This document shows, piece after piece, positions 54,835 through 64,000 of a stretch of DNA of 64,000 nucleotides; the first letter of the stretch is position 1, and every line of letters begins with the position of its first letter. The DNA is from Chthonomonadales bacterium. Its GTDB lineage: Bacteria > Armatimonadota > Chthonomonadetes > Chthonomonadales > CAJBBX01. The position numbers and the translations under genes are program-made. Location: NCBI GenBank assembly GCA_020849275.1, contig JADLGO010000009.1, forward strand, positions 62,001 to 126,000, given 5' to 3'. The notes under the pieces are model-generated. The model made no database searches, was not told the origin of the DNA, and worked only from the letters and a program-made list of their open reading frames with translations.

Positions 54835-56790
54835 TCAGCGGCGCAGGACGTAAACGTTCGTTCCGCAGCTTACGTAGACGCTCCCATCCGCGCCGGCGGC
54901 CACCCGGTCGATGTCGGCGGGAGCCTGAACCGTCGTCGCAACCGTCCGTGTGAGGCTGTCCAGCGAGACGAGCGCGCGCTTGCTCCCATACCAGAGTGTC
55001 CGCCCGTCCGTCTGCGCCACGCTCCCACTGGTGATCGGCGGCACATCGGCCGGCGTCGGGGCGAACGTCCGCCGCGCCGTGTCGAAAAGCCGCAGCTGAC
55101 TGCCCGCGCCGACGGCGAGAAGCCCTGTCGCCGGAAGCAGCGTCAGGTTGCGCACGCTCCCGGAGCCGGGCATCTCCTCGTTATGCAGCACGCTCGCGCC
55201 GCGCGCGTCGACGATGCCGAACCTCGGGGCCTGGTTGGCAAGGTCCGGCAGGCCGTTCGCGCCGAGTCCCGTGCCCACATAGAGCAGGCCGTCGCCGACC
55301 GCCAGGCCCGTGATCGCCTGCTGTGCCAGCGGGTTCTCGATCAGGTCGGTGGCGCCGGTGCTCGGGTTCGTGATGGCGATGGCGCCGCCGTAGACGCCGT
55401 ACTTCGCCATCCACCCGGAGTAGAGCTTGCCGTCGGCGCCGGCGACGATGCCGCCGGTCGGACGAATGTAGCCGCGCTGGCCCAGACTGACGATGGTGCG
55501 CGGGTTGTGGCCGCCGAGTTGGTCCCAGGGCCGGCCGGGCTCGTAGCGCACGATGTCGCCCCCCGCGTAGGAGGCCGCGTAGACCGTGTCGCCGATGAAC
55601 GCGACATCGTACACCTCACCACCGGAGTCGGTAACGGTGGAGGTGTTGACGACCGCGCGCGTCTTTGGGTCGAGGCAGAACAGCGTCTGGCCGAACGAGG
55701 GGCCGCCCCACACGCGCCCTCGCGCGTCGATCTCCAGGAAGTGCGGCGGCCTGGGGGCGGTCTCGCCGGGGATGCGCCGCAGGTCGAGCCTGGTGTCGCC
55801 GGGATGCAGCACGAAGTAGTCCTGGCCGCGCACGCCCAGCACGGCGCCGCCCGCGCTCGCCGCAAGCAGGCGGCCGCCGCGGAGATCGACCTCGGCGACG
55901 CGCGTCAACGCCGTCTCGCCGGCCTTGCAGCGGTAAACGACGCTGCCCTGCCGAAGGTAGAGGGTGTCGGGCGTGGTCAGGTCCGGGTCGACCGTCCAGG
56001 ACCCGCGCCCTTCAGGTGGAACCGGGAAGGGCACCGGGGTGACGGGCGTAAGGTCGCGCCCGGCGAACGCATGGTCGCCAACCAGGAAGAAGCCGTGCCA
56101 CAACGCGCCTTGCGAGGCGCCCTCCAGCGTGGCCGGCGGCGGCGCCCAGGCGCGCGTCGACGGGTCGTAGATCCGTGTGGTCGGCTTCTCCGTCATGAAG
56201 TAGCAGAAGATGCGGCCGTCCGGCGTGGCGGAGACGGTGCGCAGGTAGAGGTTCGGCGGCGCGGGCGCCCCGCAATCGGTCACCGCGCCGGTGGCGAGGT
56301 CGAGCGAGGCCAGTCTGCCGCCGGGGTAGGTGCCGCCATACACGCGGCCGTCGCCGCCGATGGCCAGGTTCCAGATGTAACTCTCGCCGGGCACGCCGTA
56401 GCTCTTCGCCCAGCGCATGCTCCGGAGGTCGAAGAGCATGAACTGGCCGTCGTAAAACGTGCCCACCGCCAGGCGGTCGCCGGCGACCTCGCGGAGCGCC
56501 CATGATCCGGCGCCCTTGGGCGCGCGAAACACGCGGGCCGTGTCCTTCTCCCAGTCTACGAAGATGAGCTCGGCCCGACTGGCCTCGTTCATGTTCGTCA
56601 TGACGAGCATCTCGCGGCCGCTCGAGCGGTCACGGACCACGCGGCCGGCCAGCACGTTGCGCGAGCGGCAAGGCTGCCCGAGCAACTCCAGGCGCGGCGC
56701 GCCGGCCGCCTGTACGGCGCACAGGGCCCCCAGGCACATGAGCGTTGCGCTCCCCATCGCGATCGGTCGTCGGCCGGTCAGGCTAGCCAT
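54835..56790 (-). CDS. Secreted beta-propeller (WD40/quinoprotein-like) protein
   Basis: A 651-residue protein with a signal-like N-terminus (MGSATLMCLGALCAVQAAG, about 12-30). The rest repeats blades with patterns such as GGDGRVYGGTYPGGRLASLD, DARGRVWGGPSFG, GDTVYAASYAGGDIVRYE, GADGKLYSGWMAKYG and GDGLLYVGTGLG, enough for two propellers. Ligand and activity are unknown; carbohydrate lyase or sensor roles exist among such proteins. The ATG at 56790 has GAGGAG upstream and overlaps the end of the lyase gene by 13 bases, pointing to coupled translation. A later ATG at 56757 is possible. Confidence 0.78.
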   Translation of the reverse strand: MASLTGRRPIAMGSATLMCLGALCAVQAAGAPRLELLGQPCRSRNVLAGRVVRDRSSGREMLVMTNMNEASRAELIFVDWEKDTARVFRAPKGAGSWALREVAGDRLAVGTFYDGQFMLFDLRSMRWAKSYGVPGESYIWNLAIGGDGRVYGGTYPGGRLASLDLATGAVTDCGAPAPPNLYLRTVSATPDGRIFCYFMTEKPTTRIYDPSTRAWAPPPATLEGASQGALWHGFFLVGDHAFAGRDLTPVTPVPFPVPPEGRGSWTVDPDLTTPDTLYLRQGSVVYRCKAGETALTRVAEVDLRGGRLLAASAGGAVLGVRGQDYFVLHPGDTRLDLRRIPGETAPRPPHFLEIDARGRVWGGPSFGQTLFCLDPKTRAVVNTSTVTDSGGEVYDVAFIGDTVYAASYAGGDIVRYEPGRPWDQLGGHNPRTIVSLGQRGYIRPTGGIVAGADGKLYSGWMAKYGVYGGAIAITNPSTGATDLIENPLAQQAITGLAVGDGLLYVGTGLGANGLPDLANQAPRFGIVDARGASVLHNEEMPGSGSVRNLTLLPATGLLAVGAGSQLRLFDTARRTFAPTPADVPPITSGSVAQTDGRTLWYGSKRALVSLDSLTRTVATTVQAPADIDRVAAGADGSVYVSCGTNVYVLRR

Positions 56791-57830
56791 TGGTCGATGT
56801 GCTCCTCGACGAAGGCGTCGTCGTGGAGATGCGGGTAGGCCGCGAGCACGCGGTCGATCTCGCCGATCTGCCCGAAGGAGACGTTCTCCGCGGGGTCGAT
56901 GCACCAGCGTCCCTGCATCAGCCCCTGCCGGTGCAGCACCTCGTGGATGCCGCACAGGCAGCCGGCGAAGCCGTTGGCCGCGTCGAAGAGCGCCGCGTTC
57001 GTGTCCGTTATCTGCGCGGCCAGGTCGAGCAGGCTCCGCGGGGCACACCCGGCATCGCGGGCCGCCCGGACCCGCCCGAGCAACTCGACGGCGCGCCGCG
57101 TCCCGACGGCCCACTGGCCGAGCAGGCCGCCCGCGCAGCCGACCTCGCCCTCGGGCAGAGTCCAGCACATCAGCAGATCGGCCACGATGCTGTCGTCGTT
57201 GCCGGTGTAGAGCGCGATCTCGCCCGCGCGCCCAGACTCCGCGATGGCGCGCGCAACGTCGAGGGTTCGATAGCGGTCGAACGGGGCGACCTTCACGGCG
57301 ACGACCTCCTCGATCTCCATGAAGCGGCGCCAGAACGCCAGGCTGAGTGGTCGCCCGCCAACGGCCGGCTGCAGGTAGAAGCCGATGAGAGGCAACACCC
57401 GCGCGACCTCGCGGCAGTGCGCGATCAGCATGTCGTCGCTCGCGCGCGGGAGAGCGGCCAGGCTCAGCAGGCCGGCGTCGTACCCGAGATCGGCCGCGGT
57501 GCGCGCCTCGCGCAGGGCCTGACGCGTCCTGCCACAGATGCCGGAGATGAGCACGGGCCGCTCAGGAGCCTCGCGGGCCGTCTCCGCGGCCATCTCGAGG
57601 ACCGCCATAAAGAGGCCCACCATCGGGTCGCGAATCACGAACTGCGTCGTGTGGACGGCCACGGCGAGCCCGCCGGCGCCCGCCGCCAGGTAGTAGCGGG
57701 TCAGCGCACGCTGCCGACGCTCGTCGAGCCGGCGGTCGAGGTCCAGGGCGAGGGGATGCGCCGGGATGACCAGGCCGTCGAACAGGCGCTCGCGCAGCCA
57801 GGGAAGCCGGGTGTGTGGTTCGGCAGGCAT
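56778..57830 (-). CDS. Dihydrodipicolinate synthase/N-acetylneuraminate lyase family protein
   Basis: A 350-residue Schiff-base aldolase of the DapA/NanA superfamily. The catalytic lysine is Lys180 in VVAVKVAPFDRY. The conserved tyrosine fits GFYLQPAVGG, and LYTGNDDSIVADLL matches the late active-site loop. It is longer than DapA (about 290), with a C-terminal extension (QGRWCIDPAENVSFGQ). The N-terminus lacks the usual GGTGE-type motif and instead reads HTTQF, so it is unlikely to be lysine-pathway DapA. A sugar-acid or other 2-keto-acid lyase is inferred. The start at 57830 has GGAG upstream. It is coupled to the beta-propeller gene. Confidence 0.85.
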   Translation of the reverse strand: MPAEPHTRLPWLRERLFDGLVIPAHPLALDLDRRLDERRQRALTRYYLAAGAGGLAVAVHTTQFVIRDPMVGLFMAVLEMAAETAREAPERPVLISGICGRTRQALREARTAADLGYDAGLLSLAALPRASDDMLIAHCREVARVLPLIGFYLQPAVGGRPLSLAFWRRFMEIEEVVAVKVAPFDRYRTLDVARAIAESGRAGEIALYTGNDDSIVADLLMCWTLPEGEVGCAGGLLGQWAVGTRRAVELLGRVRAARDAGCAPRSLLDLAAQITDTNAALFDAANGFAGCLCGIHEVLHRQGLMQGRWCIDPAENVSFGQIGEIDRVLAAYPHLHDDAFVEEHIDQWLA

Positions 57831-61145: not shown

Positions 61146-61159
61146 GCGCCCCGCGCTCA
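61143..61159. terminator. Stop-to-stop hairpin between the epimerase and SorC-type genes
   Basis: TGAGCGC, loop CCC, GCGCTCA: a perfect 7-bp stem. The outer three bases of each arm are the TGA stop codons of the two convergent genes. Confidence 0.5.
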
Positions 61160-62455
61160 GGCGCCGGCCGGCTCGGCCGCGGAGAGAGCGAGCAGCGCCT
61201 GGGCGCTGCAGCCGTCGGTGACGACCGCGTTGACGATGCCGCCGCGGATTGCCGCGAGGAGCGCCCGGATCCGCGTGGGGTGCGCCGCGATCACCGCCAT
61301 CACGATTCCGCCGCCGCGCACCACCCGCTTGAGCCCCTCGATGTCCATGCCGATGGGCTCGATGGCCTCGTCCGGCACGGCGTTGCCGTTCGCGTCGAAC
61401 CATAGGCCGGAGATTTCCCCGACGGCGCCCCGCTTCCGCACGCGCTCCACGTCCTCCGGAATGAGGAGCTCGCAGTGTACCATCGCCGACTCGGCCGGGT
61501 CCGGCGCGGCCAGCGACGTGACGACGAACGTGGAGCACCGGATGCGCTTCATGACGTCATTGACCACGGGGTTACGCAGCGTCGCGTCCTTGTCGGTGCG
61601 CGCTCGCACGATGGCCGGCGCCGGCAGCCAGTAGGCGTTCGTGCTCCCGTAGGACGCGGCCGCGGCCTCCGCCAGCGCGTTGGCCTCGAACGTGAAGACG
61701 GAGGGCTTCTGACTGAGCACGCCCACCATCGGCACGACGTTCAGTCCGGGAAGATGATGGCTGGGGCGCAGCAGCTTGCTGATGGTGTACACCATGCGGC
61801 CCCACGCAAGGCAGAGCGTGTCGCCTTCCTGAAGCCTCGCATCGATCTCGTTGGCGGCCGCCTGGGCGGCGGCAAGCCGCACGGCCTCCCGAGTCGCGTT
61901 CAGATAGGGGTCGTCGCCGCCGCCTGGCAGAAGCGTCTCCGGACGGCCGGGAACCAGGGCAACGGCCGCCAGGCCCAGGCTCGCCGCCAGCCGACGGGCC
62001 GTCTCCTGCAGCGTATGGTCGGCCGGCGAGCCGAGGACAACGTGGCGCACCAGGCCGAACTGCTCCGCCTCGCCGAGGAGCCGCTGCACCTCGCTGCGCG
62101 AGACGCCGCGCTGCGGCGTCGACATCTGCGCGGCCACGTCGGTCTGGGTCAGGCGGTCCCACTTCTCGCAGAGCGATCCGCGGTCCTCGGGTTGTAGGGC
62201 CATGTCCCACGCTCGGCGCACCACGCCCGACCAGCGTCCGGAGCAGTGGGGGCAGGGCCCACCCGCATCGGCCGACAGGGGCACTTGCCGCTGGCAGGTG
62301 CCGCAGAACTTGCCGGCGAGCTTGCGCGCCTCAAAGTAGAGCTGCGCGGCCCGAAAGATGCGTTCGACGCGGTCCGGATCCATCGCGTTGCCGTCGAGGG
62401 GCCGGATCGCCGGGTAGCCGATCCGCATGGGCAGGGGGCGGGCGCCGTCTCGCAT
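61157..62455 (-). CDS. SorC/CggR-family transcriptional regulator with N-terminal zinc ribbon
   Basis: A 432-residue regulator. A Cys4 zinc ribbon (Cys51, Cys54, Cys68, Cys71; CGTCQ and CPHC) comes first. A SorC-type helix-turn-helix follows (about 103-137; LTQTDVAAQM and GVSRSEVQRLLGEAEQFGLV), then the SorC sugar-phosphate-binding domain (about 160-432), with LCLAWGRMVYTI, VVPMVGVL and GLWFDANGNAV. SorC proteins bind phosphorylated sugars; CggR senses fructose-1,6-bisphosphate and represses glycolytic genes. This gene is divergent from a phosphofructokinase, so control of glycolysis is a natural inference. The zinc ribbon is not usual in this family. The start at 62455 has GGAGGAAGG upstream. 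Confidence 0.85.
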   Translation of the reverse strand: MRDGARPLPMRIGYPAIRPLDGNAMDPDRVERIFRAAQLYFEARKLAGKFCGTCQRQVPLSADAGGPCPHCSGRWSGVVRRAWDMALQPEDRGSLCEKWDRLTQTDVAAQMSTPQRGVSRSEVQRLLGEAEQFGLVRHVVLGSPADHTLQETARRLAASLGLAAVALVPGRPETLLPGGGDDPYLNATREAVRLAAAQAAANEIDARLQEGDTLCLAWGRMVYTISKLLRPSHHLPGLNVVPMVGVLSQKPSVFTFEANALAEAAAASYGSTNAYWLPAPAIVRARTDKDATLRNPVVNDVMKRIRCSTFVVTSLAAPDPAESAMVHCELLIPEDVERVRKRGAVGEISGLWFDANGNAVPDEAIEPIGMDIEGLKRVVRGGGIVMAVIAAHPTRIRALLAAIRGGIVNAVVTDGCSAQALLALSAAEPAGA

Positions 62456-62522
62456 AGTGCCTTCCTCCAGTGCCTCCTGGCAGGCAGCGATCGGCCGAGC
62501 CGGATGCGCCCCTGCACGCATC

Positions 62523-62550
62523 ATTCTAGCGCATTCGCGCGCGTTCGCGC
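62523..62550. promoter_or_regulatory. Tandem repeat next to a -10 box before the SorC-type gene
   Basis: A TAGAAT box on the minus strand (62523-62528) is flanked by two copies of GCRTTCGCGC at 62531-62540 and 62541-62550 (9 of 10 bases identical). It could be an operator for the SorC-type protein, controlling itself and perhaps pfkA. Confidence 0.4.
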
Positions 62551-62729
62551 CCGCTCGGGACGCGTCGTGGCGCCGCTCTCCGGGCGCTCGAATCCATGGG
62601 GTACTATGACCCTGGCGGGAGCAGCACGGAGCCTGCCACGGGGCGTCGATCCGGGGGGGCGCGCGGACTTAGCGCGGCAGGATCCCTCGGCGATGGCTCC
62701 CCCTCGAACCCGAGCATCGAAAGGACGGC

Positions 62730-64000
62730 ATGCCAGTGACAGAGGATGGGGCGAATGGAGGACGGGTCGGGATCCTGGTCGGGGGCGGCCCCGCGCCCGG
62801 AATCAACGGCGTCATCGCCGGCGCCACGCGCGAGGCGATCCGCAACGGTCTCGACGTGGTGGGCATCTTCGACGGGTTCCGCTGGCTCTCGCGCGGCGTC
62901 ACTGAGAACGTGGTCCCGCTGACCCATGACATGGTGGAGGCCGCCCGCCTGCGCGGCGGATCGATCCTGCGCACCTCGCGCGAGAACCCCACCAGGGACC
63001 CGGCCATGCTGGCTCGCGTGGTTGAGTCGCTTCGGGCGCTGGACATCCGCTACCTGGTGACCATCGGCGGCGACGACACCGCCTACAGCGCCAGCCGCAC
63101 CGCGCGGGAGGCGAATGGCACGGTCCGCGTGGCGCACGTGCCGAAGACGATCGACAACGATCTCCCGCTTCCGGGCGACATGCCGACCTTCGGCTTCCAG
63201 ACCGCGCGCGACGTGGGCGGTCGGCTCGTGCGCAATCTGGTGGAGGATGCCAGGACCACGCGCCGCTGGTATCTCGTGGTGGCGATGGGCCGCACGGCCG
63301 GCCACCTGGCGCTGGGCATGGGGACCTTCGGCGGCGCGGCCGTCACACTCATTCCGGAGGAGTTCGGCGACCGATCGGTGACCTTCGGTCTCCTGTGCGA
63401 TACGCTGGAAGGCGCCATCGCCAAGGCCCGGGCCAACGGCCAGGACCACGGCGTAGCGGTCATCGCGGAGGGAGTCGGCGAGCTGCTGAAGGAGGAGCTG
63501 AAGGAGCACCCGCTCGTGGTGGTCGAGGACGACGAGCACGGCCATCTCCGGCTCGCGGAGGTGCCCTTGGCCCTGATCTTCAAGCGCATCCTGCAGGACC
63601 ACGCGAAGGCGCGCGGCAAGAAGCGCACCTTCGTCGACGTCACCATCGGTTACGAGTTGCGCTGCGCCGACCCGATCCCCTTCGATGTTGACTACACCCA
63701 GCAGCTCGGGTGGGGTGCGCTGCGCTACCTGCTTCAGCTCGGCGAGGAGAGCTGGCACGACACCGGCGCGCTCATCTCCCTTCAGGCCGGCGAGGTGGTC
63801 CCGATCCCGTTCGACAACATCCTCGACCCGCGAACCAACCGCACGGCGGTCCGGCGCGTGAACGTGACTTCGGACCGCTATCGGTCGTTGCGGGCAGCCA
63901 TGACCCGGCTGGAGCGTGCCGACTTCGAGGACGCCGCCCGGCTGGAGGAGATCGCGGCCGCCGCGGGCCTGTCGGCCGAGGAGTTCCGCGGGAGCTACGC
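62730..64000 (+). CDS. pfkA: 6-phosphofructokinase, PPi-type signature (3' end cut by window edge)
   Basis: A partial gene: 423 codons are visible and the frame runs off the right edge. It is a phosphofructokinase by GILVGGGPAPGINGVI, GSILRTSREN, MGRTAGHLA and EGVGELL. Two residues that set the phosphoryl donor point to pyrophosphate rather than ATP: Asp116 in GGDDTAY (ATP enzymes have GGDG), and Lys139 in PKTIDND (ATP enzymes have Gly). The catalytic aspartate is Asp142. PPi-PFK works reversibly in glycolysis and gluconeogenesis. The start at 62730 has AAAGGA upstream. It is divergent from the SorC-type regulator. Confidence 0.92.
   Translation, partial: MPVTEDGANGGRVGILVGGGPAPGINGVIAGATREAIRNGLDVVGIFDGFRWLSRGVTENVVPLTHDMVEAARLRGGSILRTSRENPTRDPAMLARVVESLRALDIRYLVTIGGDDTAYSASRTAREANGTVRVAHVPKTIDNDLPLPGDMPTFGFQTARDVGGRLVRNLVEDARTTRRWYLVVAMGRTAGHLALGMGTFGGAAVTLIPEEFGDRSVTFGLLCDTLEGAIAKARANGQDHGVAVIAEGVGELLKEELKEHPLVVVEDDEHGHLRLAEVPLALIFKRILQDHAKARGKKRTFVDVTIGYELRCADPIPFDVDYTQQLGWGALRYLLQLGEESWHDTGALISLQAGEVVPIPFDNILDPRTNRTAVRRVNVTSDRYRSLRAAMTRLERADFEDAARLEEIAAAAGLSAEEFRGSY

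What the first reader, a model, noticed from the sequence alone, without database searches (positions are those of the whole stretch)
61157..62455. SorC/CggR-type regulator carrying an N-terminal Cys4 zinc ribbon
Cys51, Cys54, Cys68 and Cys71 precede the helix-turn-helix, an addition I do not know from this family. It faces a phosphofructokinase gene, so it may be a glycolysis regulator that also senses metal or redox state.
Basis: partly seen in the sequence, partly recalled or inferred. Interest (0 to 1): 0.6.

Follow-up and report, generated by a model that had tools for sequence, protein, structure and literature searches.

The report
Sugar regulator with embedded zinc ribbon
A bacterial sugar-metabolism repressor in an Armatimonadota genome has a four-cysteine, probably zinc-binding loop spliced into the middle of its DNA-reading domain, an arrangement absent from every relative examined; the host protein itself belongs to a well-known family.

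Summary
The ORF (61157-62455, minus, 432 aa) and Cys51/54/68/71 are real. It is a SorC-family regulator (sugar-binding domain 2.6e-33), but of the SorC/DeoR subfamily, not SorC/CggR. The cysteines do not precede the HTH. A leave-one-out profile splits the protein cleanly: residues 27-42 match DNA-binding helix 1, residues 101-423 match the rest, and 58 residues (43-100) carrying CxxC-x13-CPHC are inserted between helix 1 and helix 2. The DNA-reading arginines corresponding to DeoR R34/R39 are kept. No other SorC protein examined has the insert (about 25 full-length, nearly all from the phylum). A 52%-identical ribbon sits in an unrelated protein of the same phylum, so the ribbon looks like a transplanted module. 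The two nearest homologs (42-46%), both ribbonless, neighbour FBP aldolase/phosphatase and GAPDH; the window gene faces a PPi-type phosphofructokinase across 274 bp. This supports control of glycolysis/gluconeogenesis by a sugar phosphate. A structural or DNA/partner-contact role for the ribbon is more likely than metal or redox sensing. The architecture is known from one genome only, so selection on the cysteines could not be tested. New variant of a known kind; moderate interest.

The parts
61157..62455 (-). SorC/DeoR-subfamily regulator gene, 432 aa
   Evidence: Pfam PF04198 2.6e-33; NCBIfam NF053881 DeoR 4.9e-24, below its equivalog cut-off; DeoR 8r7y matched over both domains by the family profile, 1.3e-43
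62464..62468 (-). Shine-Dalgarno-like GGAGG, 8 nt before ATG 62455
   Evidence: sequence
62321..62377 (-). DNA-binding domain helix 1 (residues 27-45)
   Evidence: AlphaFold H27-45; relatives' helix-1 profile 15.5 bits against a maximum of 8.6 in 2000 shuffles
62156..62329 (-). 58-residue insertion (residues 43-100) absent from all relatives examined
   Evidence: alignment A1; leave-one-out HMM: model 2-17 to residues 27-42, model 19-342 to residues 101-423
62243..62305 (-). Cys4 zinc ribbon core C51GTC-x13-C68PHC71
   Evidence: sequence; 52% identical over 31 aa to the ribbon of L032; aligned ribbon profile A2; strands in the model at low confidence
62123..62146 (-). helix 2 of the HTH (residues 104-111)
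62108..62122 (-). 5-residue insertion STPQR in the HTH turn (residues 112-116)
62060..62098 (-). recognition helix 3 (residues 120-132); R120 and R125 align with DeoR R34 and R39
   Evidence: role of R34/R39 from PMC11229326
61175..62020 (-). sugar-phosphate-binding effector domain (residues 146-427)
   Evidence: Foldseek to DeoR/LsrR/SorC/CggR domains
62456..62729 (.). 274-bp divergent intergenic region, presumed operator/promoter region
   Evidence: gene boundaries; no sigma-70 consensus promoter and no strong palindrome found
62730..64000 (+). PPi-type phosphofructokinase gene, 429 aa, ends about 19 nt beyond the window
   Evidence: NF041103 4e-163, 543 bits against cut-off 550; GGDDT and PKTIDND motifs

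Best explanation
This is a SorC/DeoR-type transcription factor whose three-helix DNA-binding domain has acquired an in-frame Cys4 zinc ribbon between helices 1 and 2. Inferred working: it binds as a tetramer to the 62456-62729 region, represses the divergent PPi-phosphofructokinase gene and probably its own gene, and releases when its C-terminal domain binds a phosphorylated intermediate of upper glycolysis (FBP, DHAP or a hexose phosphate). The ribbon binds Zn(II) through Cys51/54/68/71 and most likely serves as a structural extension of the DNA-binding domain that adds DNA-backbone or partner contacts, not as a sensor. Shown: family, subfamily, insertion point, kept DNA-reading residues, gene neighbourhoods. 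Inferred: zinc binding, operator, effector, direction of control, role of the ribbon.
For: Family and subfamily: and PMC11229326. Insertion inside the HTH. DNA-reading arginines kept. Glycolysis link: PPi-PFK divergent; homolog L041 (46%) divergent from a GAPDH-II-like plus FBP aldolase/phosphatase pair; homolog L044/L037 (42-45%) next to FBP aldolase/phosphatase and GAPDH-I. Effector: Glu347 in GAVGE aligns with the Glu of CggR AVTE, by numbering Glu269 of the FBP site discussed in PMC6920703, whereas DeoR, LsrR and SorC have Asp there. Zinc: CPxC knuckle pattern and a similar ribbon in L032, and in multi-ribbon proteins L054 and L056.
Against: The ribbon architecture is seen once; no ortholog to test selection on the cysteines. 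The PFK pairing is not conserved in sister genera. No operator could be identified. The Thr151-Thr152 of CggR's FBP site appears replaced by Arg-Met (WGRM) in this protein (alignment to DeoR WGTT; equivalence to CggR from general knowledge), so FBP itself may not be the ligand. The ribbon in the AlphaFold model has low confidence (pLDDT about 55). The two HTH insertions could weaken or abolish DNA binding.
Confidence: 0.5

Rival explanations
1. The ribbon is a metal or thiol-redox switch: loss of zinc or oxidation of the cysteines distorts the helix 1/helix 2 packing and releases the repressor, so the protein integrates sugar-phosphate and metal/redox state.
For: The ribbon is covalently embedded in the DNA-binding helical bundle, where a folding change would be transmitted directly.
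Against: CxxC/CPxC ribbons are commonly stable structural sites (general knowledge); no metal or redox genes among the immediate neighbours; no relative shares it.
Confidence: 0.12
2. A neutral or decaying chimera: the insertions destroyed DNA binding, and the gene persists by chance or has a non-DNA function.
For: Single occurrence; two insertions in the HTH, one in the usually tight turn.
Against: Intact 432-codon frame with normal codon-position composition and a good SD; recognition-helix arginines kept; other Armatimonadota SorC-like proteins (L144, L145, L147) also have expanded HTH turns; a near-standard ribbon core would not be expected in decaying sequence.
Confidence: 0.15
3. An ordinary SorC/DeoR regulator of another sugar pathway that merely happens to lie beside the phosphofructokinase gene; the ribbon is incidental.
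For: PFK adjacency is not conserved in sister genera; more distant homologs (L042/L038, L043/L039) are not near glycolysis genes.
Against: The two closest homologs, in other lineages, independently neighbour FBP aldolase/phosphatase and GAPDH.
Confidence: 0.22

Closest known systems
SorC/DeoR subfamily (B. subtilis DeoR 8r7y/7bhy, SorC 2w48, LsrR 4go1)
   Same: Homeodomain-like three-helix DNA-binding domain followed by the Sugar-bind effector domain; recognition-helix arginines R34/R39 kept as R120/R125
   Different: 58-residue Cys4 ribbon insertion between helices 1 and 2, and a 5-residue insertion in the HTH turn
CggR (B. subtilis, SorC/CggR subfamily)
   Same: Same effector-domain fold; Glu at the position of CggR Glu269; probable control of glycolytic genes
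   Different: CggR has a winged HTH of about 100 residues; CggR Thr151/Thr152 appear replaced; the profile matches CggR only from the end of the DNA-binding domain onward
L044/L037 and L041 regulators
   Same: 42-46% identical, same effector-domain signatures, beside FBP-metabolism genes
   Different: No ribbon; standard HTH
Armatimonadota zinc ribbons CxxC-x3-V(P/D)xxS-CPxC-xxxW (L032, L054, L056)
   Same: Motif, and 52% identity over 31 aa (L032)
   Different: Those occur in unrelated proteins (L032: copper-amine-oxidase N-like) or as tandem ribbons, not in a SorC regulator

Membership tests
SorC family | C-terminal Sugar-bind effector domain of about 250 aa (PF04198) | tested here: met
   2.6e-33, 115.8 bits against cut-off 27; fold match to DeoR/LsrR/SorC
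SorC family | N-terminal HTH DNA-binding domain | tested here: met
   Helices 27-45, 104-111, 120-132; interrupted but alignable
SorC family | Tetramer on a bipartite operator, released by a phosphosugar | not testable with these tools
   needs biochemistry
SorC/DeoR subfamily | Contiguous homeodomain-like HTH of 50-60 residues | tested here: inconclusive
   Residues and helix order match but the domain is interrupted by 58 residues, so it is not a contiguous 50-60 residue unit
SorC/DeoR subfamily | Conserved base-contacting arginines of the recognition helix (DeoR R34, R39) | tested here: met
   R120 and R125; contacts from PMC11229326
SorC/CggR subfamily | Winged HTH of about 100 residues | tested here: not met
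   CggR matched only by profile positions 49-333; best NCBIfam match is DeoR
Cys4 zinc ribbon | Two CxxC/CPxC knuckles suitably spaced | tested here: met
   C51-x2-C54-x13-C68-P-H-C71
Cys4 zinc ribbon | Match to a curated ribbon family above its cut-off | tested here: not met
   DZR 0.014 and Zn_ribbon_19 0.03, both below cut-off; so it is called ribbon-like by motif and by similarity to L032, not filed in a named ribbon family
Cys4 zinc ribbon | Binds Zn(II) | not testable with these tools
   needs metal analysis
PPi-dependent phosphofructokinase (neighbour) | NCBIfam NF041103 above cut-off | tested here: inconclusive
   543.2 bits against 550; GGDDT/PKTIDND motifs fit the PPi type

The most novel reading that the evidence does not exclude
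A zinc ribbon embedded between helices 1 and 2 of a SorC/DeoR HTH acts as a second input (zinc or thiol redox state), gating a glycolysis/gluconeogenesis repressor that also senses a sugar phosphate.
Probability: 0.12. Interest if true: 0.65.

Novelty: new variant of a known kind. Interest (0 to 1): 0.36.

Why it matters
HTH domains usually gain modules at their ends. This would be a case of a folded metal-binding module accepted inside the helical bundle of a sugar regulator, and it offers a direct test of whether such an insert only stabilises the domain or adds a second signal. It also points to a small regulator group, mostly in Armatimonadota, linked to FBP metabolism.

Tried and rejected
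Scan of genome contigs with the single protein found no relative; the alignment scan found nine loci, none with a ribbon where the N-terminus was held. Viral contigs: none. Plasmid records: 106 SorC matches, of the 25 rows shown all but one start at residue 100 or later. My degenerate DNA pattern for the ribbon was mis-spaced and did not even match the window, so says nothing. Most weak ribbon-profile hits are probably chance (several contain stops). A first script tallying N-termini read several loci on the wrong strand and was replaced. Folding residues 24-140 alone was uninformative (pLDDT 48). Promoter, palindrome and repeat scans of the intergenic region gave nothing convincing. Rejected: 'the ribbon precedes the HTH' and 'CggR subfamily'. 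Paper searches: none held CggR, SorC and zinc together; a broader search gave no description of a SorC regulator with a zinc ribbon in the titles and abstracts listed.

Full report
Observation. The ORF 61157-62455 (minus) encodes 432 aa with cysteines at 51, 54, 68 and 71. ATG 62455 has GGAGG 8 nt upstream. Two CxxC motifs at this spacing occur in 0.07% of shuffles of a protein with 9 Cys, and the insert region shows the codon-position composition of a coding region.

What it is. Pfam gives only Sugar-bind PF04198 above cut-off (2.6e-33, residues 187-423). NCBIfam's best model is DeoR NF053881 (4.9e-24, residues 103-422, below its equivalog cut-off). A profile of the protein and five relatives matches full-length DeoR 8r7y at 1.3e-43 over both domains and the isolated DeoR DNA-binding domain 7bhy at 6.8e-14, but CggR only from the end of the DNA-binding domain on. 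PMC11229326 defines two subfamilies by their DNA-binding domains: SorC/DeoR (50-60 residue homeodomain-like HTH) and SorC/CggR (about 100-residue winged HTH). The window protein is therefore of the DeoR type.

Where the cysteines are. In alignments with relatives, residues 43-100 have no counterpart. A profile built without the window protein splits it cleanly: model 2-17 on residues 27-42 and model 19-342 on residues 101-423. In that search the helix-1 piece on its own is below significance (-1.4 bits), but a dedicated helix-1 profile scores 15.5 bits against at most 8.6 in 2000 shuffles of the N-terminal 100 residues. AlphaFold, with eight sequences, places helices at 27-45, 104-111 and 120-132 with the ribbon and a low-confidence linker (76-100) between the first and second; ribbon confidence is low (about 55). 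The ribbon is thus inside the DNA-binding bundle. A further 5 residues (112-116) lie in the HTH turn; some other Armatimonadota SorC-like proteins also have expanded turns (L144, L145, L147), so this need not be fatal. The DeoR base-contacting arginines R34 and R39 correspond to R120 and R125.

How widespread. The genome lies in Armatimonadota, as the record titles of contigs from its same-phylum relatives show. In 291 genomes of the phylum no other protein with the combination was found; among the distinct SorC-like ORFs recovered from the fetched loci, about 25 of them full-length SorC proteins, only the window protein, recovered twice from overlapping loci, carries the ribbon. No close ortholog exists in the sister genera, and no second genome of the same genus was held, so conservation of the cysteines could not be tested. 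Similar ribbons exist elsewhere in the phylum: L032, a copper-amine-oxidase N-like protein (Pfam 2.1e-14), has a ribbon 52% identical over 31 aa, and L054 and L056 carry several ribbons in a row. The ribbon therefore looks like a module that was transplanted.

Neighbourhood. Across 274 bp stands a 429-aa phosphofructokinase that fits the PPi-dependent model NF041103 at 4e-163 but falls 7 bits under its cut-off. Its orthologs in sister genera (about 60% identical) have no SorC gene alongside in the stretches examined, so the pairing is recent or has been lost elsewhere. However, the closest regulators from other lineages, both without ribbon, sit by related genes: L041 is divergent from a GAPDH-II-like gene followed by FBP aldolase/phosphatase, and L044/L037 is convergent with FBP aldolase/phosphatase and GAPDH-I. 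Three contexts around FBP metabolism favour control by an upper-glycolytic sugar phosphate. Glu347 lies in the position of the CggR AVTE glutamate, which by my numbering is Glu269, a residue of the FBP site discussed in PMC6920703; DeoR, LsrR and SorC have Asp. Against FBP as such, the Thr-Thr pair of DeoR (and, from general knowledge, CggR) is Arg-Met here.

Mechanism. Best supported: a sugar-phosphate-responsive repressor of the PPi-PFK gene with a structural zinc ribbon extending its DNA-binding domain. Zinc binding, operator and effector are inferred. Metal or redox sensing is possible but has no positive evidence.

Novelty. The family is well known. The embedded ribbon is a new variant as far as the tools could show; the literature search found no description, but the held library is incomplete.

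Noticed in passing
L032:1333-1992 (genome G254): Predicted copper-amine-oxidase N-like protein with a Cys4 ribbon 52% identical over 31 aa to the window ribbon; L054 and L056 encode proteins with several tandem ribbons of the same style.
   Followed up: partly
L041:3526-6939: SorC-type regulator divergent from a GAPDH-II-like gene and FBP aldolase/phosphatase: a candidate gluconeogenic switch locus in an unnamed lineage.
   Followed up: partly
genome G053 (loci L018, L022-L025, L140): About 15 Sugar-bind domain matches in large (590-740 aa) open frames, apparently an expansion of SorC-like sugar-binding domains.
   Followed up: no
L144, L145, L147: SorC-like regulators of about 440 aa with an expanded HTH turn, recurrent in other families of the same order.
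   Followed up: no
window 56778-57830 (-): DHDPS-like gene whose relative also lies beside the phosphofructokinase ortholog in L116 (3325-4395), suggesting old synteny interrupted here by the porin, epimerase and regulator genes.
   Followed up: partly
window 62530-62549: Tandem 10-bp repeat CGCATTCGCG/CGCGTTCGCG in the intergenic region next to TAGAAT on the minus strand; could be an operator but is CG-rich low-complexity sequence.
   Followed up: no
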